Source: Pontibacter vulgaris
GTDB lineage: Bacteria > Bacteroidota > Bacteroidia > Cytophagales > Hymenobacteraceae
Direction: 5' to 3'
Assembly (NCBI RefSeq): GCF_022758145.1
Contig: NZ_JAJVDH010000002.1
Span: 868,001 to 932,000, forward strand
DNA: 64,000 bases
Shown here: positions 10,895 to 32,243 of the stretch, one piece after another
Layout of the letters: each line of letters opens with the position of its first letter
Numbering within the stretch: position 1 is the first letter of the stretch
Notes under the pieces: model-generated
Database searches by the model: none
The model's input: only the letters and a program-made list of their open reading frames with translations
Told to the model about the DNA's origin: nothing
Translations under genes and position numbers: made by a program

Positions 10895-10899
10895 AAAGC

Positions 10900-16186: not shown

Positions 16187-16229
16187 ACAGACACAAACTA
16201 TACTTTTATAACCAATCTAATCTACACAC

Positions 16230-16808: not shown

Positions 16809-16823
16809 GCAGCTATAACATAC

Positions 16824-16859
16824 AAAGCCCCGCTACCAGAAAGTATGCGGGGCTTTTTT
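16824..16859 (+). terminator. Rho-independent terminator
   Basis: AAAGCCCCGC pairs with GCGGGGCTTT around a 13-nt loop that contains AAAGTAT, followed by six T. It ends the 13310-16808 transcription unit. Confidence 0.88.
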
Positions 16860-16903
16860 ATGCTAAAAGTATAAGTAAAAGTTGGGTGAAGTATAGGAGT
16901 GAA

Positions 16904-17335
16904 TTATCGTTTCACAACCATAGACTCGGCCAGGCGGTCGTGCAGGGTGTTTTTATCAGAGTGATAGTTGCCTGTAATAAACCTGAAAATCACGATAACC
17001 ATTGTGATGGGCTTTGCAGCGTAACGTACGGAGGCTTTTTTAAAACTGAGGCACGTTCCATTAACATTTTTAACCCGAAGCCCCAGTAATTGCTTGCCTA
17101 TAGTGGCTTGTATGGCACAACTTTCGGCTCCGGCAAAGTATAGCCAGCCCAGTAAAAAATGCAGGAATAATTCAGGCTTTAGGAGAAAGGCAGTCTCGTC
17201 GCTGCTGATCGTAAAATAATCTTCCAGGCCAATAACAGCCAGCAGCAGCAGAGCATCTATAGCAAAAGCAACCACACGAACTCCCATGTCGGCCAGTTCA
17301 ACGTTGTTTTTTGATGTAGAGTATACCGCTTGCAT
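16904..17335 (-). CDS. RDD family membrane protein
   Basis: The 143-residue membrane protein has the RDD pattern: MGVRVVAFAIDALLLLAVIG near the N-terminus, a second helix around FLLGWLYFAGAESCAIQATIGKQLLGLRV, and a C-terminal helix with HDRLAESMVVK. A basic GKQLLGL.V turn follows helix 2, as usual. Function is unknown for most members; transport or membrane-protein modulation has been proposed. It is similar to the protein at 18962-19399. Confidence 0.85.
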   Translation of the reverse strand: MQAVYSTSKNNVELADMGVRVVAFAIDALLLLAVIGLEDYFTISSDETAFLLKPELFLHFLLGWLYFAGAESCAIQATIGKQLLGLRVKNVNGTCLSFKKASVRYAAKPITMVIVIFRFITGNYHSDKNTLHDRLAESMVVKR

Positions 17336-17429
17336 GTGCTAAGTGCTTATAGTAGAGTGCGTAATGACTTATACTATAGCGCGGCTTACAAGTTGCGGTA
17401 TGTGGTATGTTATGAAGGGTAAACTGATA

Positions 17430-17924
17430 TTAAAATAATGTAAGCTGCTTTTCAGGCTGAAGAATGCCTTCGTGGCGCAGCAGCCACTCTTTGCGCCATA
17501 GGCCACCGGCGTAGCCTGTCAGGCTGCCGTCACTGCCGATTACGCGATGGCAGGGCACAAGTATACACAGCGGGTTTCTGCCATTGGCTGCTCCTACGGC
17601 CCTAATGGCTTTCTCTCCGGAAATGCTCCTGGCTACATCCATATAAGAATTTGTTTTGCCAAAAGGTATACTTTTAAGCTGCTCCCATACTTGTTGCTGA
17701 AACACGGTGCCTGCAGGCACAAGCGGGAGATCAAAGTCGCGGCGCTGCCCGGTAAAATATTCATCCAGTTGCTGCACGCACTGCTTTAACACATCCGGCA
17801 CATGCTCCGAAACTACAACTTCGTCTTCGCAGAAAAGTGTGCTGCAGATGCCCGTATCCGTGCCTGTAATTTTAACAACACCAATAGGAGAGGGGTAACA
17901 GGTAGTATAAATCTCGGTAGCCAT
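17430..17924 (-). CDS. ogt: Methylated-DNA--[protein]-cysteine S-methyltransferase
   Basis: The 164-residue protein has the active-site motif LVPCHRVIGSDGSLTGYAGG (acceptor Cys in PCHR) and the DNA-binding region GTVFQQQVWEQLKSIPFGKTNSYMDVA upstream of it. This is a suicide repair enzyme: it moves methyl groups from O6-methylguanine or O4-methylthymine to its own cysteine. It lacks the N-terminal Ada phosphotriester domain, so it is the simple Ogt type. Confidence 0.93.
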   Translation of the reverse strand: MATEIYTTCYPSPIGVVKITGTDTGICSTLFCEDEVVVSEHVPDVLKQCVQQLDEYFTGQRRDFDLPLVPAGTVFQQQVWEQLKSIPFGKTNSYMDVARSISGEKAIRAVGAANGRNPLCILVPCHRVIGSDGSLTGYAGGLWRKEWLLRHEGILQPEKQLTLF

Positions 17925-17960
17925 ACCTGTAAGTTAAGAAATTTGCGGCCGTATAGCAAC

Positions 17961-17990
17961 AAAAAAGCCGGCACATGGCGCCGGCTTTTT
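17961..17990 (-). terminator. Rho-independent terminator after the type A T9SS cargo gene
   Basis: AAAAAGCCGGC pairs with GCCGGCTTTTT. It works on the minus strand, just past the stop at 18007, and is symmetric enough for either direction. Confidence 0.82.
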
Positions 17991-18006
17991 GCACAGGGTA
18001 AAGGGG

Positions 18007-18882
18007 TTATCTCTTTATTAAGCGTTTGGTATCGGAGCCGGCGGCTGTTTCTATTTTATAATAGTAAGTAGCATTTGGCAGGTCGCGCAGGTTAACTTCC
18101 AGGGTATATTTTCCTGGTGCCTTATTCTCGTTCAGGAGGGTGCGCAGGGTGGTGCCTTTTTCATCCAGCAGGGTTATTTTTACATTGCCCTGTTTGGCTA
18201 CAGAATAGGCAATGGTATTAGCATTGGTTGCCGGGTTCGGATAAACCGATACTTCTTTGTCTTTTTTGCTTTTACCGGCTTTGCGTACTTCCTTTTCAGA
18301 GCCATCCCAAAGTATAAACTGGGCCGGGCGCAGCAGGTGGTTGTACTGCATGTATGCGCCGCCACGTTTTTTATGTTTGCCTTTCTCTCCGGCTTCAGGC
18401 GTTACGCCATACTTGGCCAGAATTGCTTTAATGTCGGCATCCCATTTGGTGCGGTCATCACGCAGGTCTACCTTTATGCGTTGCATCTGCGTTTTATACC
18501 TTTCGGCAATGGCTGCAGCAGCTGTGTATACTTGCTTTACTTTTTCGTGCTGTGCTTTTACCTGGGCTTTCTGGGCATCGGTAAGCGGTGTTTTGTTTTC
18601 GCCACGGGCTGCTTTAAGCTGCTCTTTCAGGGCTTTGCCTTCCTGGCGGGTTTGCTGTAATTGCTGGCGCAGTTTTTCTATTTCCTGCTTGTCTTTGGCC
18701 GATATTTCTTTTTCCAGTTTCAGGCGTTGCGCGCGTAGCACGGGGCGCACATTTTTCTGCATGTAAGTGTGCAGTTCTTTGCGCAGCTCGGGGTTCTTTT
18801 GTTTGCCCCCGGCAAGCGTTGCCGTACTGATTGCGACCAGCAACACCAGCAGCATCAGGTTTTTTATTCTGTTCAAGTACAT
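18007..18882 (-). CDS. Secreted coiled-coil protein with T9SS type A sorting domain
   Basis: The 291-residue protein begins with a signal peptide (LLVLLVAISTATLAGG). Residues about 30-170 form a long charged helix rich in Lys, Gln and Glu, probably a coiled coil and Spy-like in composition. The C-terminal ~80 residues are a type A T9SS sorting domain: VSVYPNPATNANTIAY, then NVKITLLDEKGTTLRTLL, GKYTLEVNLRDLPNATYYYKI and a basic end KRLIKR. It should cross the outer membrane through the type IX machinery and have its CTD removed. The mature function is unknown. Confidence 0.85.
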   Translation of the reverse strand: MYLNRIKNLMLLVLLVAISTATLAGGKQKNPELRKELHTYMQKNVRPVLRAQRLKLEKEISAKDKQEIEKLRQQLQQTRQEGKALKEQLKAARGENKTPLTDAQKAQVKAQHEKVKQVYTAAAAIAERYKTQMQRIKVDLRDDRTKWDADIKAILAKYGVTPEAGEKGKHKKRGGAYMQYNHLLRPAQFILWDGSEKEVRKAGKSKKDKEVSVYPNPATNANTIAYSVAKQGNVKITLLDEKGTTLRTLLNENKAPGKYTLEVNLRDLPNATYYYKIETAAGSDTKRLIKR

Positions 18883-18961
18883 AGAGGTTAAAGGGTTAGG
18901 TTTATACTTCTAAGACTGGAACAGAAGCCATAGGTTTAAAGGGATAAAATAAATTTATGCG

Positions 18962-19399
18962 TTACCTTCTGAAGACAAGTGTACCGGCAATAATATCGTG
19001 AAGGGCCTGGTTTTTGTCTGTAAAGCCAGCCATAATATACCCGATGAAAAAAATTGCCGATGATATGATCTTGGAAAGATAACGCCCTGTGGCTTTTGCA
19101 AACGAAGGCCGCACGCCACGCTCGTCTGTTACAAAAACTCCCATTATTTGCTTGCCAAAAGTAGCCTGGTATTTAGAGCTTTCCATGCCGGCATAGTATA
19201 ACCAACCCAGTACAAGGCCAGCCAGGTTCAGTTGCAGCGAAGTTTCAGGGTTTTGCAGGTTAAGGGTGGTCACCGCGCTCCAGGTAAGTATGAGCAGGAA
19301 GGTAAGCATAAAGGCAACAATGCCATCCAGTAAAGCGGCTGCAAATCTGGCCCAGAAGCTGGCGTAGGTAGGGGTTGTTTCTTGTGTAAAGGTATTCAT
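18962..19399 (-). CDS. RDD family membrane protein
   Basis: The protein has 145 residues from ATG 19399. A longer frame to 19465 adds an unlikely N-terminus, and the preferred start is immediately before TFTQETTPTYASFWARFAAA. RDD features are FWARFAAALLDGIVAFMLTF (helix 1), GWLYYAGMESSKYQATFGKQIMGVFV (helix 2 and the basic GKQ turn) and a final helix before HDIIAGTLVFRR. It is a paralogue of the protein at 16904-17335. The two flank ogt and the T9SS cargo gene. Function unknown. Confidence 0.85.
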   Translation of the reverse strand: MNTFTQETTPTYASFWARFAAALLDGIVAFMLTFLLILTWSAVTTLNLQNPETSLQLNLAGLVLGWLYYAGMESSKYQATFGKQIMGVFVTDERGVRPSFAKATGRYLSKIISSAIFFIGYIMAGFTDKNQALHDIIAGTLVFRR

Positions 19400-19454
19400 G
19401 TAAAAGAGTAGTAAATCTGTGCTAATGATAAGGTAATTACCGCACAATGGCAAC

Positions 19455-19480
19455 GAAAAAGCCACCGCAACGGGTGGCTT
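19455..19480 (-). terminator. Terminator after the cytochrome c gene
   Basis: On the minus strand GCCACCC pairs with GGTGGC around a short GTTGC-containing loop, followed by TTTTT, 36 bp past the stop at 19516. Confidence 0.75.
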
Positions 19481-19515
19481 CTCTGTTTTTGCTATGATTT
19501 ATACTTTATACTTTA

Positions 19516-20529
19516 TCAGGATTTACTGGCTGTTGCTTTAGGCGCAGGCGAAAATTTGATCACTTTGTTTTTGGTTGGCTCAACAGTGCGCAGGTACTTG
19601 TAAATGGCACGCAGGTCTTCTTCTTCCATGCCGCCATACATACTCCATGGCATTACTGAGTTATACCCGTCAGGGCTTACTTTTGCCAAAGCCTCCGGAT
19701 TGCCTCTCGATTTAAAGCGCTGAACGAAAGTATCCTCTGTCCAGGTACCTATGCCGGTTTCTTTATCCGGGGTGAGGTTAGCAGAACGCACAACGGCATT
19801 ATTCGGAAATTTAAATTCTACGCCGCCTGCCAGATACATGCCTTCGAGAGGCCCGTCTTTATCCTGTGGTGTATGGCATTCAGCACAGGAGGCCATCGTG
19901 AACAGGTATTTTCCTTTAAGTACAGGGTCTTTAAGCTCAGGGTCTTTTGCAGTTGCCAGCGGGCGGTTTTCAGGCAGGGTACGCAGGATCAGGCTGAATG
20001 GAAAATCAGGCTCCGATTTAGGTACAACATTTTTAACAGGGGCCAGCGTACGGATATAAGCGATAATGGCATGTACATCCTGTTCGGCCATCTGGTTGAA
20101 AGCTTTATAAGGCATCAGCGGGAAAAGTGGCTCGCCGTTTTTACTTACACCCATCGTAATGGCACGGTACAGTTCGCCATCGGTCCAAGCGCCAACACCG
20201 GTTTCCTTGTCTGAAGTTATGTTTTTAGCATAAAAAGTGCCCGGAAAACCCATGTTCTGGTCAAATTTATCTCCACCTTTTCCTTCTGTACCCGGCACTA
20301 AAGGGCCTGAAAAACGGGACCAGTCGCGCGACGAATGGCAATCGATACACACTGCCACATGGTTTGCCAGGTATTCACCTCGTTTTTCTAGTGCAGCTGT
20401 CTTATTAACAGATAGTACAGGGGCTGCATCTACTTTAGGGAAAGTATAGCGGAGGTATAAAACGCCTGCTGCAATAACAAGCACAATACCCACAACTATA
20501 TACCCAATAATTTTAAAGGCCTTTTTCAT
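19516..20529 (-). CDS. Membrane-anchored dihaem c-type cytochrome
   Basis: The protein has 337 residues from ATG 20529; a GTG two codons upstream is possible. An N-terminal helix (about 5-25, IIGYIVVGIVLVIAAGVLYL) anchors it, with the rest periplasmic. Two haem-binding CxxCH motifs are visible, CIDCH at 61-65 and CAECH at 215-219, each followed by a candidate axial Met (FPLMPYKAF and NSVMPWSMY). The halves are similar, so this is a tandem cytochrome c domain protein. It probably shuttles electrons in respiration or serves a membrane dehydrogenase. No partner enzyme gene is adjacent. Confidence 0.9.
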   Translation of the reverse strand: MKKAFKIIGYIVVGIVLVIAAGVLYLRYTFPKVDAAPVLSVNKTAALEKRGEYLANHVAVCIDCHSSRDWSRFSGPLVPGTEGKGGDKFDQNMGFPGTFYAKNITSDKETGVGAWTDGELYRAITMGVSKNGEPLFPLMPYKAFNQMAEQDVHAIIAYIRTLAPVKNVVPKSEPDFPFSLILRTLPENRPLATAKDPELKDPVLKGKYLFTMASCAECHTPQDKDGPLEGMYLAGGVEFKFPNNAVVRSANLTPDKETGIGTWTEDTFVQRFKSRGNPEALAKVSPDGYNSVMPWSMYGGMEEEDLRAIYKYLRTVEPTKNKVIKFSPAPKATASKS

Positions 20530-20838
20530 AAACACAGGAAGAACAGATGAGATTGAAAGTATACTTAAATAATATGGTAATTTTAATAAAAAATTATACT
20601 TATTAAAATAGCAACTTATGATCCAGGCGGTAGTTTTGAGTAAACACCTTGTAGGGAATGGTAAAATAGAACAAAAATAAAGGGGCTAGAAGTTGTCGGT
20701 GCATGTGCCGGCTTTAATGGGCAGGACAGGGTTTTGGTTTTACTTGTAAGCAGATGTAGTTGAGGCCAAAAGTATATTGGTAAAAACAAGAAAGGAGAAC
20801 TTTCGAAGTTCTCCTTTCTTGTTTGAGTTGTTAAAAAC
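20530..20838. other. Intergenic region with palindromic AAGTATACTT and a terminator
   Basis: This 309-bp gap has no gene. It contains AAGTATACTT at 20557-20566, a full palindrome of the abundant heptamer, an AT-rich segment just upstream of the cytochrome gene, and a strong terminator hairpin at 20786-20822 for the M16 operon. Confidence 0.7.
20783..20825 (-). terminator. Strong terminator of the M16 operon
   Basis: ACAAGAAAGGAGAACTT pairs perfectly with AAGTTCTCCTTTCTTGT around a TCG loop, the longest stem among the terminators listed here. A and T runs on both sides allow minus-strand termination just past the stop at 20839. Confidence 0.88.
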
Positions 20839-22476
20839 TTATCTGAACGTGTCTTTGCTATCCACGATCTTTACGTCTTTTACATTTAGTTTATAGTTGG
20901 CGATCTCAGCATCTTCAGCCAGCACTTCTTTTGGCAAGCCTTCTTTTACCAGGTTAGAATAGCTCATCGGCGATGGTGTGTTGTTCAGCAGGGCTTGTTT
21001 CAGAGGCTCTGCTTCGCTGTCGTCGGTAACAACGGTAACGAACATATTATCTACCTGCCAGTATTTTTTAACAGCTTTGTTTACATCATCTACTGTTAAC
21101 TTAGCCAGCAGGCGGTCCATTTCCTGGATATAATTCTGGCGGCCGTAGAAGCGTGAATCCATTAAAAAGCCCAGTTGCTTCTCTTCTGTCTGGATGTAGA
21201 GTTTCATGTAGGAGCGCAGAAACTTGCGTGTGAGCTCAAATTCTTCAGCCGTCATACCGTTTTTAATCAGGTTGTCTACCTCACGCACGGCCAGGCGAAG
21301 GGCAAAGTGTGCATGGCCAACGTTAATATCCTTTAGCTCTGCATATTGTTGTTTCAGGCCTTCGGCAATCTGAACCGGGCGCAGCCACAAGGCAAAGTAA
21401 TTGGAAGTGCGCGGCACGCCCGGGTTTGGTAACTGGTAGCTTCCACCGTTGTCGTACCACTCAATGTAAGAGTAGTCGCCATAGTTCATAGAGCGCGTTG
21501 TACGGATTTTGTCATATAGTTTACCGTAACTTTTGCGGTGCTCGCCTAGGTATGAGTTGGCCACCATAAGGGCAGCAAAATCATTGGCAGAACGTGTAAC
21601 CGGCAAAGGCATACCTGTAAATACAGCGGAACCCAGCGCATCGCTTTTCTGAATAATCTCTACCTGAACTCCGTTTGGCCTATTTGGCTGCCCGGCCAGT
21701 GGTATGTTTGGTTTTACCTCCGATAGCTGCGCCACATCGGCTTTTACTTTGTTAAGGAAATCCTGGCTATAGTTACCGGCTATCCCGATCATTACGTTGT
21801 TGCGGGTAAAGTATTGGCGCCAGTGGTTCTTAACATCATCCAGGGTTATACTTTTAACACCAGCCGATGTGCCCTCAGGCGTGTGCTGGTAGTTGGTGCC
21901 CCGGAACAGCAGATCTTCGAGAGCCTTTTTGCTATACTCTTCATCCGACGATGCCCGGATTACCTGGTCTACATAGTTTTGCTGGTTCGAGAGTACGCGC
22001 TTGAAATCTTCTTCGGCAAATGCAGGTGTTAGCAACAGGCCACGAACAATCGGGTAAAATTCGTTCAGGAAATCCTGGTGCACTTCAAAAGTAAAAGTGG
22101 TTACTTCTTTATCCACGTTGGCAGAATAGCCTGCCGCCATCGGGAAAAGCTTATCCTTTATCTGGGCAGTGGTCATATCCTTTGTGCCACTTTCCGTAAT
22201 CATTTCGGCTGTAGTATAAGTAAGGCCTTCCTTGCCTTTCGGGTCCGACATAGAACCGTTCTTAAACATCAGCTTGATGATTACTTTATTTGATTGCGGG
22301 TTCTGCAGTTCCACTACTTTATCCGGTGCAAAAGCCAGGTTGGCATCGTAGGCAACAGGCATTGTAGTAGTAACGGCGGTGGTTGTTGCGGTGCTTTGCT
22401 GAGATGCCTGCGGTTGTTTGGCGCAGGACGCTGCAACCAACGCAACAGGCAATATATAGGCAGCTAATTTTTTCAT
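20839..22476 (-). CDS. M16 family protein, non-catalytic lipoprotein subunit
   Basis: The 545-residue protein has a lipoprotein signal peptide (VALVAASC, Cys near residue 18). It has the two-lobe M16 layout, but the first lobe lacks the HxxEH zinc motif: the matching place reads GLTYTTAEMITE. The C-lobe has the substrate-side Arg/Tyr region (RTTRSMNYGDYSYIEW). M16B enzymes often work as heterodimers of a zinc-bearing chain and such an inactive chain. The active partner is encoded 42 bp upstream at 22519-23874. It should be attached to a membrane, holding the pair at the periplasmic surface. Confidence 0.88.
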   Translation of the reverse strand: MKKLAAYILPVALVAASCAKQPQASQQSTATTTAVTTTMPVAYDANLAFAPDKVVELQNPQSNKVIIKLMFKNGSMSDPKGKEGLTYTTAEMITESGTKDMTTAQIKDKLFPMAAGYSANVDKEVTTFTFEVHQDFLNEFYPIVRGLLLTPAFAEEDFKRVLSNQQNYVDQVIRASSDEEYSKKALEDLLFRGTNYQHTPEGTSAGVKSITLDDVKNHWRQYFTRNNVMIGIAGNYSQDFLNKVKADVAQLSEVKPNIPLAGQPNRPNGVQVEIIQKSDALGSAVFTGMPLPVTRSANDFAALMVANSYLGEHRKSYGKLYDKIRTTRSMNYGDYSYIEWYDNGGSYQLPNPGVPRTSNYFALWLRPVQIAEGLKQQYAELKDINVGHAHFALRLAVREVDNLIKNGMTAEEFELTRKFLRSYMKLYIQTEEKQLGFLMDSRFYGRQNYIQEMDRLLAKLTVDDVNKAVKKYWQVDNMFVTVVTDDSEAEPLKQALLNNTPSPMSYSNLVKEGLPKEVLAEDAEIANYKLNVKDVKIVDSKDTFR

Positions 22477-22518
22477 GCTATAGCGATTGATATAGGTCTT
22501 GATTTTATTTAAACCGGA

Positions 22519-23874
22519 TTACTTTACCGGCGACTTTTCGGCCGGCGAGATGGTACCGATAGTAAGTGTCTGGTTCACGAAGTACTTTTTGGCCACATCC
22601 ATCAGGTCTTTAGCTGTAATGGTATCGTAAACGCTGTAAATGTTGTTAAGCGATTCCGGGTTGCCTGTAAGCCAAATATAGCGGCCCAGGGCGTTGGCAA
22701 TTGCGTCAGGGCTATCCATGCTCATGGCAAAGCTATACTTGATGCGTGACTTCGTTTCTTCTATTTTTTTGGCATCAATAGGCTTTGTTTTCGCATTGTT
22801 CAGCGTTTTTGTTATCTCATCTTTAATGTATTGCATGTCCTCCGGCTTAACCACAGAAGCTGAAACAGAGATCAGGTTAGGGTCGCGGGCAAACTGTGCG
22901 CCGCCACCTATAAAGCGGGCTTTCTGCTCGTTTATAACAAGTTTGCGGTACAGGTCAGAGTTCTCTGCAAAAAGTATGGTTGTAAGTATGTTCAGGGCTG
23001 GCAGGTCTTTACTTTTGTCGTTAAAAGCGGGGCCTTTATAGTTCAGGCTCAGGTATGGCGGGAAGCCGGCTTGTTTCACGTGGGCGTAGCGGGTTTCGGT
23101 TTGCTTTGGCTCTGTTGCAATGTCAGGTTTATAGTTGCCGCGCTTCCAGTTACCGAAATACTGCGCTGCCAGCTGGTTTACCTGCTCCGGTTTTACATCG
23201 CCTACTACCATTATAGTGGTGTATTCAGGGCGATAAAAACGATCGAAGAAAGTTAGCGAGTAATCATACTGGTTTGGCATATCCACCACATCCTCGAAAA
23301 AGCCCATGGTAGTGTGCGCGTAAGTATGTTTTGTAAAAGCGGTGCTGGCCGTTTTTTCATACAATTGCTGGTAAGGGCTGGCCGAGTTCTTTGTGTATTC
23401 ACCCTTCACGGCACCGGCTTCTGTTTTAAAATCGTGCACGCTATACTTCAGGTTCTGGAAGCGGTCTGCCTCAATCTCAAACATCTTGTCCAGCATTTCC
23501 TTGTTACCGGTCATGTAATACATGGTGCGGTCTATAGAGGTATTGGCGTTGGCCGCAGCGCCCATCGCTTTCATAATATCGCCATAAGCCTCTTTGCTAT
23601 ACTTGTCGGTGCCCCGGAACATCATGTGCTCGAAAAAGTGCGCAAAGCCGGTTTTGCCTTTTTCTACTTCCTCGCGCGAGCCCGCTCTGACTACTAAGTA
23701 AAAGGCAGCAATGCCCGGGCTGTTATAAGGTACAGTTACTACGTTCAGGCCGTTATTCAGCATTTTCTGATGGATAGGGTAGGGCAAAATTTTCTTGCTC
23801 TGGCTGCCCTGCGCCACTGCCGACGATACAGCAACAGCAAAAAGCAACAGCAAGGCTACAAATCTGTTTTTCAT
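22519..23874 (-). CDS. M16 family zinc metallopeptidase, catalytic subunit
   Basis: This 451-residue exported protein has a signal peptide ending VSSAVAQ. The zinc motif is HFFEH at 79-83, with a third ligand Glu about 76 residues later in GAVKGEYTK (about 159). GTDKYSKEAYGDIMKAMGAAANANTS is typical of the family. It has one catalytic lobe and one C-terminal lobe, the length of M16B enzymes that pair with a non-catalytic chain. The downstream gene encodes that likely partner. It probably degrades peptides in the periplasm. Confidence 0.93.
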   Translation of the reverse strand: MKNRFVALLLLFAVAVSSAVAQGSQSKKILPYPIHQKMLNNGLNVVTVPYNSPGIAAFYLVVRAGSREEVEKGKTGFAHFFEHMMFRGTDKYSKEAYGDIMKAMGAAANANTSIDRTMYYMTGNKEMLDKMFEIEADRFQNLKYSVHDFKTEAGAVKGEYTKNSASPYQQLYEKTASTAFTKHTYAHTTMGFFEDVVDMPNQYDYSLTFFDRFYRPEYTTIMVVGDVKPEQVNQLAAQYFGNWKRGNYKPDIATEPKQTETRYAHVKQAGFPPYLSLNYKGPAFNDKSKDLPALNILTTILFAENSDLYRKLVINEQKARFIGGGAQFARDPNLISVSASVVKPEDMQYIKDEITKTLNNAKTKPIDAKKIEETKSRIKYSFAMSMDSPDAIANALGRYIWLTGNPESLNNIYSVYDTITAKDLMDVAKKYFVNQTLTIGTISPAEKSPVK

Positions 23875-24028
23875 GGTTACACTTTTAGGTAAAGGTTTTA
23901 AACCAAAAGGTTCTGTTTTAAAGCTTAAATATAGCTATTCTGAATTTTTAGCTTTGTAGTACGAACGGTAAACTCGACGAATGGATAGGTTTTATCGGCA
24001 AACATACTTTGAGAATACTTTTGAAAAA

Positions 24029-24065
24029 CAAAAAGGCCCGGCAAGTATAGCCGGGCCTTTTTGTT
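24029..24065 (-). terminator. Terminator after the DAACS transporter gene
   Basis: AAAAGGCCCGGC pairs with GCCGGGCCTTTT around a loop that is exactly AAGTATA, the abundant window motif. T-runs lie on both sides. It is just past the stop at 24084. Confidence 0.87.
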
Positions 24066-24083
24066 TATAGTTCCTGATCCAGG

Positions 24084-25514
24084 TTAATGAATCGGGTGGT
24101 TTTCCTTTTCAGCTATTTTTTCGGCTATTTCAGGACTGGAAGTTGCTACCAGGCCTGTTTCAGGCTCCGGGTTAAACTCTCCTTCCCAGCGGGCCACAAC
24201 GGCCGTTGCAAGGCAGTTACCCGTAACGTTTACCGAAGTACGGGCCATGTCCATCAATTCATCTATACCAAGTATAATAAAGATTGGCTCTACAGGCAGG
24301 TTGAATGAAGCAGCCGTACCTAAAAGTATAACCAGAGATGCACGCGGCACACCAGCTACCCCTTTACTTGTCAGCATCAGGGTAAATACCATCAGCAACT
24401 GCTGCGACCAGCTCATATGAATGCCCGCAGCCTGCGCTACGAAGATGGATGCAAGCGATAAGTATAAAGTTGTACCATCCAGGTTAAAGCTATAACCGGT
24501 AGGCATTACGAAAGCAACTATACGGCGTGGCACACCCAGTTTTTCCATTTCTTCCATGGCGCGTGGCAGGGCAGCCTCGGAACTGGTAGTGGCAAATGCA
24601 ATGGAAACCGGTCCGGAAATGGCCTGCAGGAAACGTTTAACAGGTACGCGGGCAATAAGCGCTACCGGCAACAGTACCAGCACCAGGAAGGCAAGCAAAG
24701 CTACATAAAGGGTTGCCAGCAACTGGAACAGGTTTACCAAAATACCGAAGCCCATATGGCCTACCGTATAGGCAATGGCAGCACCCACACCAATTGGCGC
24801 AAAGTACATGATCACGTTCGTGAATTTGAACATGGTTTCGGCAAGGCTTTCGCAGAAATCAAGCATTGGCTTGCGCTTTTCTTTGGCAACCATAGCCAGA
24901 CCAATGGCAAACAGCACACTGAAAATCACGATCTGAAGTACCTGGCCTTCCGCTACCGATTTGGCTATGTTCTCAGGGAAAACGTGCAGAATGATATCAG
25001 AAACAGTTTGTTTTGGAGCTGCTGTTATACCTTCGTGGTTCTCGGCTTTAAGTGTAATGCCAACGCCTGCCTGGCTTATGTTTATGGCTGCAAGACCAAT
25101 GAAAAGGGCCAGTGTAGTTACAATCTCAAAGTATAAAATGGCTTTCCAGCCCATGCTACCCACCTGTTTCAGGTTAGAGTGGCCAGCTATACCTACCACC
25201 AGCGTAGCAAATATCAGCGGTGCAATAATGGTTTTTATCAGCTTCAGGAAGACCTTGCTGAGCACATTGAGGTTCTGGGAGAAAGCCGGGAAATCATTTC
25301 CGATCTCAGCCCCGACTATCATACTGATCAGGATCCAGGCCGTGAGCGAGCGCTTCTGTACGCCATACATGATCAGGACGCCGATAGCGGCCCAACGGAT
25401 AGCCATCATTGCCGCTTCAGGGAGCGCCAGCAGCTGATTCTGCTGCAATACGGTAAGTATAGCCGCAATCGAGATTACGAGCAGGGTAAGGCGTGGAATA
25501 AAAGATTTTTTCAT
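24084..25514 (-). CDS. Dicarboxylate/amino acid:cation symporter (DAACS)
   Basis: The 476-residue polytopic membrane protein has the DAACS core: the re-entrant loop motif ATTSSEAALPRAMEEMEKLGV, the helix with FVMPTGYSFNLDGTTLYLSLA (NLDGT) and a second hairpin around ASKGVAGVPRASLVIL with a following FIILGIDELMDMARTSVNVTGN. These bind substrate and Na+/H+. It imports glutamate, aspartate or C4-dicarboxylates at the inner membrane; which one is unclear. It stands alone and is divergent from the dipeptide epimerase gene, which could suggest a role in Glu or peptide use (inference). Confidence 0.92.
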   Translation of the reverse strand: MKKSFIPRLTLLVISIAAILTVLQQNQLLALPEAAMMAIRWAAIGVLIMYGVQKRSLTAWILISMIVGAEIGNDFPAFSQNLNVLSKVFLKLIKTIIAPLIFATLVVGIAGHSNLKQVGSMGWKAILYFEIVTTLALFIGLAAINISQAGVGITLKAENHEGITAAPKQTVSDIILHVFPENIAKSVAEGQVLQIVIFSVLFAIGLAMVAKEKRKPMLDFCESLAETMFKFTNVIMYFAPIGVGAAIAYTVGHMGFGILVNLFQLLATLYVALLAFLVLVLLPVALIARVPVKRFLQAISGPVSIAFATTSSEAALPRAMEEMEKLGVPRRIVAFVMPTGYSFNLDGTTLYLSLASIFVAQAAGIHMSWSQQLLMVFTLMLTSKGVAGVPRASLVILLGTAASFNLPVEPIFIILGIDELMDMARTSVNVTGNCLATAVVARWEGEFNPEPETGLVATSSPEIAEKIAEKENHPIH

Positions 25515-25817
25515 AAAAGAATAAATAAGGGCAATTGGCTTTGGGTGCTTTGCCGTAAGTAATGCGCATTGGTTGCAAGCAGCAAAAATGCCCTTAACAC
25601 TTGATTACCATGGATGCACAGGTATAAAAACATAGCAAATATAAGTTTTTAGTGCACATTGGCAAAGGGCTGAGGGCTTATATCCCACTTTAATTTAGGG
25701 AGTAGCAGTATACTTTTAGGAATTTGTGTAGAGCCAGACAGCGGGGCAAGTATAGCTTATTAGCTAAAAAAGTAGCATCTTCCGCAGTTCTTTACCACCA
25801 TTTTTAGAAAACAAGCT
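25515..25817. other. Divergent intergenic region, transporter/epimerase
   Basis: This 303-bp gap lies between the divergent DAACS and epimerase genes. It must hold promoters for both, but I find no exact TAnnTTTG with a spaced TTTG. Several AAGTATA/TATACTT motifs are present, and no gene. Confidence 0.6.
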
Positions 25818-26807
25818 ATGTTAAACTGGCGCATAGAAGCCCTGCACCTGAAGCTGAAGTATACCTGGAAGATAGCCCGTAATGCGAGCAACGAAAAAGT
25901 TAATTTCCTGGTGCAGGTATCGGATGGTACGTACAGCGGCTTTGGCGAGGCAGCCCCTAATATACGCTACGGCGAAACCCCGGAGCTTTTACTACAGCAA
26001 TACCAGGTACTGTTAATGGCCGGGCTGGCGCAGGTAAAATCCATGGAAGACTTGCTGCAGCTTTTGCTCGAGCACCAGCCTGTAAATGCCCTGCGTTTTG
26101 CTATCGAATCGGCTTACGTGCATTTTTATTGCCAGCATCAGAACATAGCTGTGCACCAGCTGTTAGGCCAGCCGGCCCCACACCAGCAGGCTACCTGCTT
26201 TTCGCTGCCCATTATGGATACCGGCGAGGTTGGCGACTTTATCCGGAAGTATAACATCAACCGCTTTAATAGCCTGAAGATTAAAGTAAACCAGGAGCAG
26301 GGTGCTGATTTGGTGGCCGAAGTAATGAAGCACACCAACCGCCCGCTGGTAGTAGACGGCAACGAAAGCTGGCAGGAGCCGGAGGAGTTGCTACGTTTTA
26401 TACACGGCCTCGACAGAACCCGGGTGGTATTTATAGAGCAACCTATGCCCGCCTCGTCAGCTTCGGCTTATGCAGCTATTAAACAGGAAACACCTATTTC
26501 GTTCGTAGCCGACGAATCCGTTACCGATGAAGCTGATTTTGAACTGCTGCGCCAGGAGTTTCATGGCATTAACATAAAACTGATGAAAGCTGGCGGCTAC
26601 CTGAACGCGGTACGGTTGTTGAAAGAAGCACGCCAGCACGGCATGATGGCTATGCTGGGCTGTATGGTAGAAACCAGCCTTGGTATCTGGTCGGCGATGC
26701 AGCTAAGTTCCTCTTTCGACTTTTCTGACCTGGATGGCTTCCTGATTCTGGAAGAAGAGCCTTTTGGGTTGGTGAAAGAGAGGGACGGTATACTTTATCT
26801 GAAGTAA
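25818..26807 (+). CDS. Dipeptide epimerase (L-Ala-D/L-Glu epimerase-like, enolase superfamily)
   Basis: This 329-residue cytoplasmic protein belongs to the muconate-lactonizing subgroup of the enolase superfamily. Catalytic features are present: KIKV (K154, K156), metal ligands D180 (VVDGNESW), E207 (FIEQPMP) and D232 (VADESVTD), and the second general base K254 (INIKLMKAGG). L-Ala-D/L-Glu epimerases of this subgroup recycle murein peptides. Alternatives are other dipeptide epimerases; the specificity loop cannot be read with certainty. The gene is monocistronic. Confidence 0.88.
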   Translation: MLNWRIEALHLKLKYTWKIARNASNEKVNFLVQVSDGTYSGFGEAAPNIRYGETPELLLQQYQVLLMAGLAQVKSMEDLLQLLLEHQPVNALRFAIESAYVHFYCQHQNIAVHQLLGQPAPHQQATCFSLPIMDTGEVGDFIRKYNINRFNSLKIKVNQEQGADLVAEVMKHTNRPLVVDGNESWQEPEELLRFIHGLDRTRVVFIEQPMPASSASAYAAIKQETPISFVADESVTDEADFELLRQEFHGINIKLMKAGGYLNAVRLLKEARQHGMMAMLGCMVETSLGIWSAMQLSSSFDFSDLDGFLILEEEPFGLVKERDGILYLK

Positions 26808-26925
26808 AAGACAAGTATGCCGAAGTATAACCTTCATGAAGGATAATTCTGAAAGCACTTTTAACTGCTCTCAGTCAAAATAATTAACCAAAACTAAACT
26901 TTTTTGTAAAAAAGGTGTTAATGTG

Positions 26926-26956
26926 TTTGTACATTAAATGTATGTACATATATTTG
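26926..26956 (+). promoter_or_regulatory. Promoter of the marR-yceI unit
   Basis: TTTG (26926-26929), a 19-bp spacer and TATATTTG (26949-26956) form a textbook Bacteroidota promoter (TTTG-N19-TAnnTTTG), about 26 bp before the chosen MarR start. Confidence 0.75.
26928..26948. promoter_or_regulatory. Inverted-repeat operator overlapping the marR promoter
   Basis: TGTACAT-N7-ATGTACA is a perfect 7-bp inverted repeat that fills the spacer between the -33 and -7 elements. Inside it ACATTAAATGT is a second perfect palindrome. This size and location suit a MarR dimer that blocks its own promoter (inference). Confidence 0.65.
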
Positions 26957-26982
26957 CAACACCAATGAGCATACATGCACCT

Positions 26983-27432
26983 ATGAAGATAGAGGAAGAA
27001 ATAAAGCAGAGCTCTTTTAAGTCAGAGTACCAGAAGGCATACATCAATATGATTTATACTTCGGGCTGGCTTGAGTTGGCGCAGGCAACTCTTTTTAAGC
27101 CTTTTGGCCTTACGTTGCCACAGTATAATATTTTGCGCATACTTAGGGGCCAGCACCCTGAGCCCGCTACGGTTAGTCTTTTGATTGAGCGCATGCTGGA
27201 TAAAACCTCCAATGCCTCGCGCATAGTGGATAAACTGGAGGCAAAAGGCCTTGTAACGCGTAAACAGTGCCCCAACGACCGCCGCACAGTAGATGTGCTG
27301 ATAACAGACAAAGGACTTGCCCTGCTTAAAGAGATGGACGAGTTTGAAGGCGGCCAGAAAACGGGCATCACAAATTTAACAGAACAGGAGGCGAAGGAAT
27401 TGAACCGCCTGCTCGATAAAATAAGAGATTAA
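26983..27432 (+). CDS. MarR family transcriptional regulator
   Basis: The protein has 149 residues from ATG 26983. An upstream in-frame ATG at 26938 lies within the promoter and is unlikely. The winged-helix DNA-binding region is FGLTLPQYNILRIL...TVSLLIERMLDKTSNASRIVDKLEAKGLVTR, followed by the wing with CPNDRRTVDVLITDKGLALL. The N- and C-terminal helices form the dimerisation domain. Its own promoter overlaps an inverted repeat, which suggests autoregulation. The next gene, 43 bp downstream, encodes a YceI protein and is probably co-transcribed. The inducing signal is unknown. Confidence 0.92.
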   Translation: MKIEEEIKQSSFKSEYQKAYINMIYTSGWLELAQATLFKPFGLTLPQYNILRILRGQHPEPATVSLLIERMLDKTSNASRIVDKLEAKGLVTRKQCPNDRRTVDVLITDKGLALLKEMDEFEGGQKTGITNLTEQEAKELNRLLDKIRD

Positions 27433-27475
27433 AGTAAACCAAAACCAACCTTTAGAATACACAATTAAATTTATC

Positions 27476-28135
27476 ATGAAAAAAACAGCAATTTTAGCTT
27501 CACTTGCCGCAGCGTTTATGTTCTCTGCATTTACTGGCAACACTTCAACAATTTCTACTTCAACAACTGCTACTGAAGTTGCTACTCCAGCTAAAGGCAA
27601 AGCTTTTAAACTGGATGTAACTAAGAGCGAAGTTAAATGGCATGCTAAAAAAGTTACAGGCGAGCACATGGGTACTATTAATGTAGCTAACGGCCAGCTT
27701 TTAGTAGCTAAGAATAAAGTAACCGGCGGTACCTTCACCATCGATATGAACTCTATCGCCTGCACCGACATTAAAGATGCTGAGTATAACGGCAAACTGA
27801 TCGGACACCTGAAGTCTGATGATTTCTTCAGCGTAGAGAAACACCCAACCGCTACATTCAAAATCACAAGCCTGAAGCCAATTGCTAAAGCTGCAGCTGG
27901 CCAGCCAAACACTACTGTAACCGGCGACCTTACTATCAAAGGCATTACAAAGCCAGTTACTTTCCCGGCTACAATCACGGTTAAAGGTGGTGTTGCAACT
28001 GCAAAAGCAGATGTAACCGTAGACCGCACAAAATACGATATCCGTTACGCTTCCAAGAGCTTCTTCGATACGATCGGCGACAAAGCTATCTACGATGATT
28101 TCAAAGTGTCTTTCAACGTAACAGCAAAACAGTAA
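27476..28135 (+). CDS. YceI family protein (lipocalin-like, isoprenoid-binding type)
   Basis: The 219-residue exported protein has a signal peptide-like N-terminus (KKTAILASLAAAFMFSAFTG), then a Thr/Ser-rich linker and a YceI beta-barrel domain (about 40-219): FKLDVTKSEVKWHAKKVTGEH, GTINVANGQ, a DLKSDDFF-like HLKSDDFFSVEKHPTATFKI, GDLTIKGITKPVTFP and VDRTKYDIRYAS. YceI proteins bind polyisoprenoids or related lipids in the periplasm; roles in stress or respiration are proposed. The pairing with an upstream MarR regulator fits stress- or substrate-controlled expression. Confidence 0.93.
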   Translation: MKKTAILASLAAAFMFSAFTGNTSTISTSTTATEVATPAKGKAFKLDVTKSEVKWHAKKVTGEHMGTINVANGQLLVAKNKVTGGTFTIDMNSIACTDIKDAEYNGKLIGHLKSDDFFSVEKHPTATFKITSLKPIAKAAAGQPNTTVTGDLTIKGITKPVTFPATITVKGGVATAKADVTVDRTKYDIRYASKSFFDTIGDKAIYDDFKVSFNVTAKQ

Positions 28136-28158
28136 TTACTACCTGTGTTTAGTTGATG

Positions 28159-28189
28159 AAAGCCCCGCGGCACCGCTGCGGGGCTTTTT
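28159..28189 (+). terminator. Terminator of marR-yceI
   Basis: AAAGCCCCGC pairs with GCGGGGCTTT around a 9-nt loop, followed by T and C, 23 bp past the yceI stop. Confidence 0.85.
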
Positions 28190-28243
28190 CTTTTACCATA
28201 CTTTCCAGTTGCCTATCTTTGGTTTATACTTCAGTTTATACTT

Positions 28244-28996
28244 ATGTCAGCCACTACACTCATCCGATTTATACTTCCGTTTTGCCTGATGCTTACTTTT
28301 TGTTCAGATAAACAACCCGATGCACAGCAGCTGGTAGACCAGGCCATTGCCACGCACGGCGGCGGGAAGTATAACCGTGGCGTTATCAGTTTCAGGTTGC
28401 GCGATAAACAATACAGGGCCTTGCGCGATGGCGGAGCCTACGTTTACAGCCGCACTTTTCAGGACTCAACGGGCCAGCGCGTGCACGATGTGTTGCGTAA
28501 CAGCGGCTTTACCAGAACTATAAATGGAACAGAAGTAACACTGCCGCAGGAACGAAAGGATGCTTTTTCGGCTTCTGTAAACTCTGTTATATACTTTGCG
28601 CTGCTGCCATACTTTTTAAATGATGCTGCCGTGCAGAAAGAATACATAGGCGAGGCAAGTATAAAAGAGGAGCCATACTACAAAGTGAAAGTAACGTTTG
28701 CAAAAGCTGGCGGAGGCACTGATTTCGAGGATGTATACATTTACTGGTTCCACCAGCAGCGCCATACCATGGATTACCTGGCTTATAGTTTTAAGGAAGA
28801 TGGCGGTGGCACCCGTTTCCGGGAGGCTGTAAACCCGCGCATTGTTGGCGGCATCCGCTTCCAGAATTATAACAACTATACTATTAAAGAACAGCTTCCG
28901 CTGGAGCAGTACGACAAAGCTTTCGAAGCCGGCAAACTGGAGAAAGTATCGGAAATAAAGCTGGAGGATGTGGTGGTAAGCAAGCTGCCTGAATAA
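28244..28996 (+). CDS. DUF6503-like secreted/lipoprotein-like protein
   Basis: The 250-residue protein has a hydrophobic signal (FILPFCLMLTFC). The Cys near residue 20 is followed by Ser-Asp, which resembles a lipoprotein, but Phe at -1 is atypical. The mature part has an LVDQAIATHGGGKY opening, a VISFRLRDKQYRALRDGG strand pair, YFALLPYFLND, and KVKVTFAK..DFEDVYIYWFHQQRHTMDYLAYSF. I recognise this pattern as the DUF6503 type common in Bacteroidota, from memory only, so moderately sure. It is probably a periplasmic LolA/lipid-binding-like beta fold (inference). Function unknown. Confidence 0.7.
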   Translation: MSATTLIRFILPFCLMLTFCSDKQPDAQQLVDQAIATHGGGKYNRGVISFRLRDKQYRALRDGGAYVYSRTFQDSTGQRVHDVLRNSGFTRTINGTEVTLPQERKDAFSASVNSVIYFALLPYFLNDAAVQKEYIGEASIKEEPYYKVKVTFAKAGGGTDFEDVYIYWFHQQRHTMDYLAYSFKEDGGGTRFREAVNPRIVGGIRFQNYNNYTIKEQLPLEQYDKAFEAGKLEKVSEIKLEDVVVSKLPE

Positions 28997-29027
28997 TAAC
29001 AGTGATTTTAATAATAGTCAAAGTATA

Positions 29028-29065
29028 AAACAGTAAAAGCCTGAGAGATCAGGCTTTTACTGTTT
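29028..29065. terminator. Bidirectional terminator between convergent genes
   Basis: AAACAGTAAAAGCCTGA pairs perfectly with TCAGGCTTTTACTGTTT around GAGA. It sits between the convergent genes ending at 28996 and 29082 and can serve both. Confidence 0.87.
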
Positions 29066-29081
29066 GTATGGGAGTAGCTTA

Positions 29082-30386
29082 TTACTCTACTAAAGCTTTG
29101 TTAACCCGGGTAGGTGTGTCGGTGCCGGAAACCACACCTTGTGCGCCAAGTGCAATGGCTTTTATCATATTGGTCAAGTGCGCCATATCCAGCATTTCGA
29201 ACTCATCATTCACAGTATGGTAGGTAGTGTCTTTGTCTATCTGTACGGATGAGATAGTATGTGCCGGAACGCCTAAACGTGCCAGGGTAGCATTGTCGGA
29301 GCGGTAGAACAGGTTTTGCTTAGGATAAGGATCCGGGTGGATGCTGTACGTAGTGCCTTGCAAACGTTTCTGTACCAGCTGGCCTAAATCAGAACGTTCA
29401 AAGCCCGTCATGTAAGCGCTGTTCGGGCCGAACTTAGAAGGCTTGCCCACCATTTCGATGTTAAACATGGCCACGATCTGATCAGGGTTAAACTGCTCCG
29501 AAAACATTTTAGAACCAAAACCACCGATCTCTTCAGCTGTAAAGGCTGCAAAAACGAGTGTGCGCTCAGGTTGTGGCTGTTGCTTGTAGTAATTAGCCAG
29601 CATGATCATAGCCGAAGTACCGGATGCATCATCGTCGGCACCGTTGGCAATGCTGTCGCCATCTAGGGTATGGCCGATGCCAATGTGGTCGTAGTGGCCT
29701 GAGAATAGCACGTATTCATCTTTGCGCTTTCCTTCAATAATACCTACCACATTGGTAAGCGGCAGCTTTTCTATTTTGTTTGTAGTGCTTGCTTTATACT
29801 TTTTAGCTTCTGTGGCATCGGTCAGCAGGTATACTTTGCTGCTGCCTTTGGTTAGTTCTTTTTTGACCTCACCTTTGCCCAGGTAGCGTTTAAACATTTC
29901 GAAGGTTTTGGCATGGCTTGGGTGCACCAATACCAAGGCGTCGGTGTCCTGCTTCATAATATCGGAAAACGCCTTGCGTGCATTCTCGCCTTTCTTTATC
30001 ATCAACACCTTGCGCTTCTTGCTTTGTTTCCATTTCAGCTTTTCTGCAGAGCTGGTAATTAAAACATTTTCGGCGGTTATACTTTTACCGTTCAGCGTTG
30101 CTTGTGCGGTGCCCGGGGTAATCTTATAGAAGTAAAACGTTTGCTTGAAAGAGCCCTTGGCTGCTGGCAACGGCGTTAACCCGATACGCTGAAATTCACC
30201 CTGGATAAAGTCAGCTGCTTTATCGATGCCGGGCGTAAAAGAAGAACGGCCCTGCATATCGTCGGCGCTAAGGGTTTTAACCAAACGTGTGGTTTCCTGC
30301 TCCGAAATGGTGGATAGATCCTGGGCTGAAAGGGCATTGCCAACGCATAATGCAAAGGCTGTCAGCAAGTATTTGCTGTTTTTCAT
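29082..30386 (-). CDS. M28 family peptidase (aminopeptidase-like)
   Basis: The protein has 434 residues from ATG 30386. The frame extends further upstream, but the signal peptide SKYLLTAFALCVGNALSAQ marks this start. It contains a zinc peptidase domain with GHYDHIG (H and D), GADDDASGTSAM (bridging D), TAEEIGGFGSK (catalytic E and ligand E), and later NIEMVG and HTISS. An inserted PA-like region lies before the catalytic core. M28 enzymes are secreted di-zinc exopeptidases. It is probably periplasmic or surface-exposed. A second M28 peptidase is encoded at 35911-37293. Confidence 0.9.
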   Translation of the reverse strand: MKNSKYLLTAFALCVGNALSAQDLSTISEQETTRLVKTLSADDMQGRSSFTPGIDKAADFIQGEFQRIGLTPLPAAKGSFKQTFYFYKITPGTAQATLNGKSITAENVLITSSAEKLKWKQSKKRKVLMIKKGENARKAFSDIMKQDTDALVLVHPSHAKTFEMFKRYLGKGEVKKELTKGSSKVYLLTDATEAKKYKASTTNKIEKLPLTNVVGIIEGKRKDEYVLFSGHYDHIGIGHTLDGDSIANGADDDASGTSAMIMLANYYKQQPQPERTLVFAAFTAEEIGGFGSKMFSEQFNPDQIVAMFNIEMVGKPSKFGPNSAYMTGFERSDLGQLVQKRLQGTTYSIHPDPYPKQNLFYRSDNATLARLGVPAHTISSVQIDKDTTYHTVNDEFEMLDMAHLTNMIKAIALGAQGVVSGTDTPTRVNKALVE

Positions 30387-30492
30387 AGTGTGCGGTTTAA
30401 GTATAGGTTTTTGATAGATTTTTAAAGAAATTGAGAAAGACAAGCAGTTGTTTCTGCCAGTCTGTTGCTCCGACACACAAGATACTGAAATT

Positions 30493-32143: not shown

Positions 32144-32208
32144 AGGCGGGAGCTTGAAGTATAGTTACAGGCTTTACTGGTAATGGCAATAGTGTAATGC
32201 GCTAAACT

Positions 32209-32243
32209 AAAACGCCCTTTTCTGCAGGTAAGAAGAGGGCGTT
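32209..32243 (-). terminator. Terminator after the dienelactone hydrolase gene
   Basis: AAACGCCCT...AGGGCGTTT forms an interrupted stem with an internal mismatch around TTTCTGCAGGTAAGA, on the minus strand, 26 bp past the stop at 32269. Confidence 0.7.

What the first reader, a model, noticed from the sequence alone, without database searches (positions are those of the whole stretch)
24029..24065. The motif sits in terminator loops and beside terminator stems
The loop of the hairpin at 24031-24062 is exactly AAGTATA. AAAGTAT lies in the loop at 16824-16859. TATACTT or AAGTATA abuts the hairpins at 8661-8690, 29028-29065, 37346-37382, 38698-38740 and 62400-62430. DNA uptake sequences in Neisseria and Haemophilus also cluster in terminators. 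The parallel is inference, but the placement is visible.
Basis: partly seen in the sequence, partly recalled or inferred. Interest (0 to 1): 0.6.

Follow-up and report, generated by a model that had tools for sequence, protein, structure and literature searches.

The report
Pontibacter genomes carry a dialect-specific DNA word
A seven-letter DNA word is written thousands of times into the chromosomes of most species of the bacterial genus Pontibacter, changes spelling between branches of the genus, and tends to settle behind genes and beside transcription stop signals; it behaves like the 'own-DNA' tags that some bacteria use to recognise relatives' DNA, although the protein that reads it is unknown.

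Summary
In 321 kb sampled of this genome, 35 of 65 predicted terminators have AAGTATA inside or within 30 bp. Much of that reflects a general excess behind genes; the further excess beside terminators is modest (1.4-1.8x over other 3' DNA in three datasets; composition-controlled p 0.046, 3e-6, 0.03). Loops are not clearly special, the loop copy at 24043-24049 is not conserved, and inverted pairs are not in excess.

The larger result is the word itself. The genome (genus Pontibacter) holds 10,614 copies against 499 for the reversed word. ARSTATA is at least 3-fold over its reversed control in 40 of 50 Pontibacter genomes, and at most 1.62-fold in 100 genomes of five other genera of the family. 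There are clade-specific dialects (AAGTATA, AGGTATA, AACTATA; up to 13,168 copies), dialect switching in place at orthologous codons, a 9-11x excess over synonymous expectation on both strands, and few copies in 7 of 9 presumed-plasmid stretches.

Best explanation: a DNA uptake sequence-like self-recognition word spread by biased uptake and recombination. ComEC and a triple-HHH protein are present; no type IV pilus ATPase was found, so the receptor should be of a new kind. Uptake specificity is untested.

The parts
24031..24062 (-). intrinsic terminator hairpin behind the sodium:dicarboxylate symporter (SDF) gene (24084-25514, minus strand); its loop 24043-24049 is AAGTATA
24043..24049 (+). 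copy of the dialect word AAGTATA forming the hairpin loop
   Evidence: not conserved at the corresponding place in 30 other Pontibacter loci
16824..16859 (+). terminator hairpin whose loop holds AAAGTATG (AAGTATG, one base off the word)
8661..8690 (+). terminator hairpin with TATACTT 2 bases downstream (8693-8699)
29028..29065 (-). terminator hairpin with AAGTATA abutting (29021-29027)
37346..37382 (+). terminator hairpin with AAGTATA at its edge (37340-37346)
38698..38740 (+). terminator hairpin overlapping TATACTT (38739-38745)
62400..62430 (-). terminator hairpin overlapping TATACTT (62428-62434)
1..64000 (.). 191 copies of AAGTATA/TATACTT spread over both strands, genes and intergenic DNA
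   Evidence: 10.9 expected; intergenic 57 vs coding 21 per 10 kb over 321 kb

Best explanation
AAGTATA is this Pontibacter lineage's dialect of a genus-specific DNA self-recognition word that works like the DNA uptake sequences of Neisseria and Haemophilus. Shown: extreme abundance; dialects that follow clades; switching of dialect at orthologous sites; imposition on the DNA in both orientations and in every codon frame that can hold the word; few copies in most presumed-plasmid stretches sampled; restriction to one of the six genera of the family sampled. Inferred: a surface or periplasmic receptor prefers DNA carrying the word; such DNA enters through ComEC and recombines, so the word is copied into chromosomes by biased uptake (molecular drive). 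A change in receptor specificity then rewrites the dialect across the genome. No type IV pilus ATPase was found, so the receptor should be of a kind not yet described.
For: Genome: 5200+5414 copies against 246+253 for the reversed word. ARSTATA against its reversed control: 3.16-fold or more in 40 of 50 genus genomes, 1.1-2.7 in the other ten, at most 1.62 in 100 genomes of 5 other genera. Dialects genome-wide: AGGTATA 5748-9303 copies in 9 of 41 genomes; AACTATA 12,640-13,168 in 3; AAGTATA and AACTATA both high in G027 and G033. G027 is sister to the three AACTATA genomes (100/100). In-place switching (ortholog groups): AAGTATA sites read AGGTATA in AGG-dialect relatives 118/808 (bootstrap 0.041-0.200; 10 of 42 groups) against 28/1035 in word-less and 6/468 in AAC-dialect ones; they read AACTATA in AAC-dialect relatives 30/468 (0.028-0.112) against 1/1035 and 0/808; AGGTATA sites read AAGTATA in AAG-dialect relatives 118/695 (0.065-0.261) against 12/569. 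Own word kept at 0.45 (AAG) and 0.59 (AGG) of orthologous sites, control medians 0.11 and 0.21. Given protein and codon usage, the word occurs 8.8x (AAG), 11.3x (AGG), 9.1x (AAC) more than expected in genes, 1.4-1.6x in word-less genomes. Orientation follows gene strand (r 0.64), not GC skew (r 0.10), over 20 stretches of G031. Presumed plasmids per 20 kb: G001:C2 2, 3 (chromosome stretch 25); G020:C2 4, 20, 5; G021:C2 11, 6, 1; G032:C4 0 in 5.9 kb. ComEC over cut-off in 41 of 41; an HHH_3 frame of 304-346 aa in 40 of 41, disrupted in G022. Pilus-less transformation exists in this phylum (PMC8459023: abstract, passages, sections 19-20).
Against: No uptake or transformation report for Pontibacter was found. 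ComEC and the HHH protein are as present in word-less genomes as in carriers, so they do not track the word. No receptor was found: DUF5689, a domain of a Riemerella transformation protein, matches 17 of 41 genomes and not this one, and its short form starts like a lipoprotein. The known or proposed uptake-word receptors are type IV minor pilins, and pilus ATPases were not found. Inverted pairs are not in excess. One G020:C2 stretch is as rich as the chromosome and one G021:C2 stretch is intermediate. The rpoB/ribosomal-protein stretch L088 is word-poor (14 in 20 kb), so scarcity is not unique to mobile DNA. Word-less genomes still show up to 2.6-fold ARSTATA excess (G002). In-place switching rests on about 10 ortholog groups per comparison, with non-independent pairs and no correction for relatedness; the reverse AAC test is weaker (AACTATA sites reading AAGTATA: 30/630 in AAG-dialect against 5/349 in word-less relatives, intervals overlapping) and AGG-AAC exchanges have intervals reaching 0.
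Confidence: 0.5

Rival explanations
1. HIP1-like word: abundance maintained by a DNA methyltransferase or a methylation-coupled repair process rather than by uptake.
For: HIP1 in cyanobacteria (recalled, not read) is comparably abundant and its function is also debated; DNA methyltransferase families match most genomes of the genus.
Against: The word is not palindromic. PF01555 has no match in 15 of 41 genomes, 11 of them word-bearing. PF02384 matches all 41, but in G006 (8482 copies of AAGTATA) only by one weak hit (E 1.5e-4) in a 289-aa frame. PF07669 has no match in G002, G022 and G059, of which G022 is a clear carrier, so this rests on one genome. PF02086 and PF00145 were not tested.
Confidence: 0.2
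2. Recombination (Chi-like) or chromosome segregation (KOPS-like) signal read by a DNA-translocating enzyme.
For: Short asymmetric over-represented words are typical of Chi and KOPS (recalled).
Against: Strand follows gene orientation and coding opportunity, not GC skew, though GC skew is weak in G031 and ori/ter were not mapped. Rewriting of thousands of sites between branches of one genus, and few copies in most presumed-plasmid stretches, are not expected.
Confidence: 0.12
3. Transcription-related element: the word is part of terminators, pausing or mRNA 3'-end processing.
For: 3'-intergenic density exceeds other intergenic DNA in two of three datasets, with a further modest excess beside terminators in all three.
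Against: 577 of the 850 sampled copies are inside genes, in both orientations and in every codon frame that can hold the word. The loop copy is not conserved. An excess beside terminators is kept with three different spellings.
Confidence: 0.08
4. Mutational or gene-conversion bias, or spread of a mobile mini-element, with no receptor.
For: Direct close pairs are frequent in the AAC-dialect set (198 direct against 60 inverted).
Against: Little conserved sequence beyond about 10 bp, so no element body. The word is made in situ by codon choice. 7 of 9 presumed-plasmid stretches have few copies, although plasmids may simply be recent arrivals.
Confidence: 0.1

Closest known systems
DNA uptake sequence (DUS) dialects of Neisseriaceae
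   Same: Thousands of copies per genome, asymmetric word of about 10 bp, clade-specific dialects differing around a shared core (there CTG; here A..TATA), common in intergenic DNA and linked to terminators (PMC3630211, passages)
   Different: Different sequence and phylum; no type IV pilus ATPase found, so no ComP-like system expected; not arranged as inverted pairs; uptake preference not shown
Uptake signal sequence (USS) of Pasteurellaceae
   Same: Abundant word tied to self-DNA uptake (titles and abstract starts seen; its link to terminators is recalled)
   Different: No AT-rich flanking segment here (the USS flank is recalled); a type IV minor pilin receptor is proposed there (PMC12616744, title and abstract start in the listing only)
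Type IV pilus-independent natural transformation of Riemerella (Flavobacteriia)
   Same: Same phylum; ComEC and an HHH protein, no pilus homologs; R. columbina transformation was competed by its own DNA but not by equal amounts of R. anatipestifer or E. coli DNA (PMC7965970, section 16; PMC8459023)
   Different: No uptake word established there (its listed top k-mers are mostly A/T-only; same section); the DUF5689 protein is not a consistent Pontibacter gene
HIP1 of cyanobacteria (recalled)
   Same: Extremely abundant short word
   Different: HIP1 is palindromic and linked to methylation; this word is asymmetric and none of three methyltransferase families tested clearly tracks it

Membership tests
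DNA uptake sequence / USS | Genome-wide over-representation far above composition | tested here: met
   10,614 vs 499 reversed; 191 vs 10.9 in window
DNA uptake sequence / USS | Present on both strands without replication polarity | tested here: met
   5200/5414; orientation follows genes, not GC skew, in G031 (ori/ter not mapped)
DNA uptake sequence / USS | Related clades carry dialects that share a core | tested here: met
DNA uptake sequence / USS | Scarce on mobile or foreign DNA | tested here: inconclusive
DNA uptake sequence / USS | Inverted pairs forming terminator stems | tested here: not met
   54 of 130, 60 of 258 and 34 of 76 close pairs inverted; stem density low
DNA uptake sequence / USS | Type IV pilus machinery with a minor pilin receptor | tested here: not met
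   PF00437 matches listed are partial in all 41 genomes, 2 of 41 over cut-off with about 60 of 370 positions; pilin families themselves not searched
DNA uptake sequence / USS | DNA translocation channel ComEC and a periplasmic HHH DNA-binding protein | tested here: met
   ComEC 41 of 41 (frame carries a stop in G009 and G022); HHH_3 41 of 41; the gene in 18 of 18 genomes compared by locus; periplasmic location not tested
DNA uptake sequence / USS | DNA with the word is taken up or transforms better | not testable with these tools
   needs bench work
HIP1-like methylation word | Palindromic word | tested here: not met
   AAGTATA is asymmetric; palindromic AAGTATACTT occurs 10 times beside 850 copies
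HIP1-like methylation word | A methyltransferase shared by all carriers | tested here: inconclusive
   PF01555 not shared; PF02384 without a strong hit in G006; PF07669 missing in G022; PF02086 and PF00145 not tested
Chi / KOPS | Polarity with the replication fork | tested here: inconclusive
   r = 0.10 with GC skew over 20 stretches of one single-contig genome, skew weak, ori/ter not mapped

The most novel reading that the evidence does not exclude
Pontibacter has an independently evolved, type IV pilus-independent DNA uptake word system with switching dialects: a new kind of receptor reads A[A/G][G/C]TATA, rewrites thousands of chromosomal sites when its specificity changes, and sets genetic barriers between branches of the genus. 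G027 and G033 are caught mid-switch with two dialects.
Probability: 0.42. Interest if true: 0.88.

Novelty: new variant of a known kind. Interest (0 to 1): 0.72.

Why it matters
Uptake words are documented in the Pasteurellaceae and Neisseriaceae, where the identified or proposed receptors are type IV minor pilins (abstract starts). A dialect-bearing word in a Bacteroidota genus in which no pilus ATPase was found would be an independent origin, would point to an unknown receptor in a phylum where non-pilus transformation is only beginning to be mapped, and, with bilingual and word-less species in one genus, would make the origin, switching and loss of such words directly testable. If it is not an uptake word, it is an equally unexplained genome-wide pressure on codon choice.

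Tried and rejected
(1) Loop placement as a specific property: not supported; loops held 4, 7 and 1 copies against 1.9-3.8 expected, and the SDF terminator loop is not conserved in 30 other Pontibacter loci. (2) Word-poor stretch L088 as a genomic island: rejected; six of its proteins are L1, RpoB, RpoC, EF-G, L2 and S3. (3) A first in-place switching test on 80 ortholog groups rested on 3 groups for AAG-AGG, with intervals reaching 0; it was repeated with 211 groups. (4) DUF5689 as shared receptor: rejected. (5) Linking word level to broken competence genes in G022 (ComEC and HHH gene both frame-disrupted): dropped, because assembly errors are possible and its word density is not the lowest among carriers (G020 has fewer AAGTATA per base). 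(6) Word-less calls from single 20-kb stretches proved unsafe: the first G029 stretch looked word-less but the genome has 7666 AGGTATA. (7) A possible further dialect in G028 (AGGTAGA) did not hold up with more sequence. (8) Rows dropped: one search used 149 sequences of those held; left out were the mixed-dialect loci, stretches of G007, G020, G022 and G059, the presumed plasmids, and some stretches of word-less or other genomes (L115, L116, L118, L123, L168, L169 among them). One search used 22 AGG-dialect stretches, not all held. (9) Literature: searches returned no paper; two unrelated ones; one paper on LexA in which the two terms occur in unrelated sentences (passages seen). (11) Other genera: none of 13 Rufibacter, Adhaeribacter and Sabulibacter loci has a raised AAGTATA (0-3.9 per 10 kb), but L036 (Adhaeribacter terrigena) has raised ATTATTA-type words, not followed up.

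Full report
OBSERVATION. The hairpin at 24031-24062 with loop AAGTATA is present as described, and so are the six other placements, with one qualification: the loop at 16824-16859 carries AAAGTATG, one base short of the word. The word occurs 191 times in the window against 10.9 expected and tops the 7-mer list. Twenty-two of these are copies in register in one repeat gene (51228-61364; 231-234-bp steps or multiples), which does not change the conclusion. Genome-wide there are 10,614 copies in 4.19 Mb against 499 for the reversed word.

TERMINATORS. With a simple gene caller and hairpin-plus-T-run finder of my own on the window plus 13 stretches (321,545 b), 65 intergenic terminators were found, 35 with the word inside or within 30 bp, 11 of 15 in the window. 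Copies per 10 kb: genes 21, 5' intergenic 43, other intergenic 34, 3' intergenic 91, terminator flanks 130, loops 115 (4 copies), stems 36. With permuted words of the same composition as control, flank over other 3' DNA was 1.43 against 1.04 (p=0.046); in the AACTATA-dialect set (22 stretches of G031) 1.80 against 0.89 (p=3e-6); in 22 pooled AGGTATA-dialect stretches 1.84 against 1.21 (p=0.03). Loops held 4, 7 and 1 copies against 1.9-3.8 expected. The 3' preference over other intergenic DNA was strong here (p=1e-9), present in the AGG set (p=0.006) and absent in the AAC set (p=0.77). Close inverted pairs were not in excess (54 of 130; 60 of 258; 34 of 76) (all). Behind the SDF gene other Pontibacter loci carry other sequences; one AGG-dialect species (P. 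roseus) has AAGTATA within the hairpin there. So the placement is real and modest, and in this genome mostly part of a general preference for DNA behind genes.

WHAT THE WORD IS. The organism belongs to Pontibacter: the nearest named relatives of the SDF gene are Pontibacter loci, 30 of the 80 returned, and several 'same genus' genomes have contigs of exactly the lengths of named Pontibacter contigs. K-mer scans of those 30 loci give 12 AAGTATA, 1 AAGTATA+AACTATA, 10 AGGTATA, 2 AACTATA and 5 without a word. Genome-wide counts agree: AGGTATA 5748-9303 in nine of 41 genomes, AACTATA 12,640-13,168 in three, both AAGTATA and AACTATA high in G027 (7552 and 8118) and G033 (9116 and 6094). This genome also has a secondary excess of AACTATA (3531 against 849 reversed). 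G059 shows a weaker GGGTAT-type signal. ARSTATA is 3.16-fold or more over its reversed control in 40 of 50 genus genomes, 1.1- to 2.7-fold in the other ten, and at most 1.62-fold in 100 genomes of five other genera of the family. Flanks add little: aAAGTATAAA, CAGGTATAGC, AACTATAG.

EVOLUTION. In the SDF tree the AGG species form one clade apart from one mixed-dialect row, the AAC species form one clade, and word-less species fall in at least three places. In a five-protein tree of 18 genomes, mixed-dialect G027 is sister to the three AAC genomes (100/100), consistent with AAG to AAG+AAC to AAC. Orthologous codons show in-place dialect switching: AAG to AGG 118/808 against 28/1035 (word-less) and 6/468 (AAC); AAG to AAC 30/468 against 1/1035 and 0/808; AGG to AAG 118/695 against 12/569. 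Pairs are not independent and relatedness was not corrected for: about 10 ortholog groups carry each signal, with bootstrap intervals 0.041-0.200, 0.028-0.112 and 0.065-0.261. The remaining directions are weaker: AAC to AAG 30/630 against 5/349 (overlapping intervals), and AGG-AAC exchanges with intervals reaching 0. A smaller first version was inconclusive. The own word is kept at 45% (AAG) and 59% (AGG) of orthologous sites against medians of 11% and 21% for permuted words passing a minimum count (34 and 16 words); two control words in the AGG set came close (0.57 and 0.53), so the AGG contrast is weaker.

DNA-LEVEL PRESSURE. Given each protein and codon usage, the word occurs 8.8, 11.3 and 9.1 times more often than synonymous choice predicts in AAG, AGG and AAC species, in both orientations and in every frame with non-zero expectation (3.3- to 38-fold per frame), against 1.4-1.6 in word-less genomes and 1.6-1.9 for the other-dialect words tested. 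This argues against protein- or mRNA-level selection as the main cause. In G031 orientation correlates with gene strand (0.64) rather than GC skew (0.10). Presumed plasmid contigs, per 20 kb: G001:C2 2 and 3 (one chromosome stretch 25), G020:C2 4, 20 and 5 (15), G021:C2 11, 6 and 1 (21), G032:C4 0 in 5.9 kb. The rpoB/ribosomal-protein region is also poor (14 in 20 kb), so strong constraint on genes appears to reduce the word as well.

MECHANISM. Among 41 genus genomes ComEC is over cut-off in all, with a stop in the frame in G009 and G022. HHH_3 matches occur in all; a 304-346-aa frame with HHH_3 is listed in 40 and is disrupted in G022, and the gene lies in the same neighbourhood in 18 of 18 genomes compared. 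PilB/PilT-type ATPases were not found: the best PF00437 matches cover about 60 of 370 positions, 2 of 41 genomes barely over cut-off, while 13 of 14 control genomes exceed it. Riemerella, in the same phylum, transforms without pilus homologs using ComEC, an HHH protein and unknown envelope proteins (PMC8459023: abstract, passages, sections 19-20), and R. columbina transformation is competed by its own DNA but not by equal foreign DNA (PMC7965970: passages and section 16). DUF5689 does not track the word. ComEC and the HHH protein are as present in word-less genomes, so the specificity factor should be something else. Methyltransferase families PF01555, PF02384 and PF07669 show no clear member common to all carriers, with the caveats that PF02384 rests on G006 and PF07669 on G022. 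The best explanation is therefore a DUS-like word with an unidentified, non-pilin receptor (0.5); the uptake step is inferred, not shown.

NOVELTY. Searches for Pontibacter with uptake sequences or natural transformation, for the word itself, and for uptake sequences in Bacteroidetes found no report of this word (open-licence PubMed Central full texts only, no preprints). Neisseriaceae dialects (PMC3630211, passages) are the closest precedent.

Noticed in passing
window 51228-61364 and 40552-49875: Two giant genes: a 3378-aa protein with SprB repeats and a 3107-aa protein with 26 Ig_7 stretches, both with a CHU_C type IX secretion signal at the C-terminal end; the SprB-repeat gene carries the word in register 22 times (231-234-bp steps or multiples).
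   Followed up: partly
L088 (G000:C2:500001-520000): The rpoB/rpoC/fusA/ribosomal-protein region is poor in the word (14 in 20 kb against 39-67 in the other own-genome stretches).
   Followed up: partly
   Followed up: partly
L221, L222 (G022): ComEC and the HHH gene are both frame-disrupted in this single-contig genome; pseudogenes or assembly indels.
   Followed up: no
L158 (G020:C2:20001-40000): A word-rich stretch (20 copies) in an otherwise word-poor presumed plasmid, perhaps chromosomal DNA captured recently.
   Followed up: no
L126-L145, L120, L218 (G031): In the AAC dialect close copies are mostly in direct orientation (198 direct, 60 inverted; 8 bp the commonest spacing in most of the stretches listed), and 114 palindromic AACTATAGTT sites occur in the G031 and G018 sample; unexplained.
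   Followed up: partly
genus-wide: The ten genus genomes with a low ARSTATA ratio are 5.0-6.5 Mb, the forty carriers 3.8-5.5 Mb.
   Followed up: no
L036 (Adhaeribacter terrigena): ATTATTA/AATAATA-type 7-mers are raised about 7-fold in this 21-kb locus; possibly a simple repeat or another abundant word.
   Followed up: no
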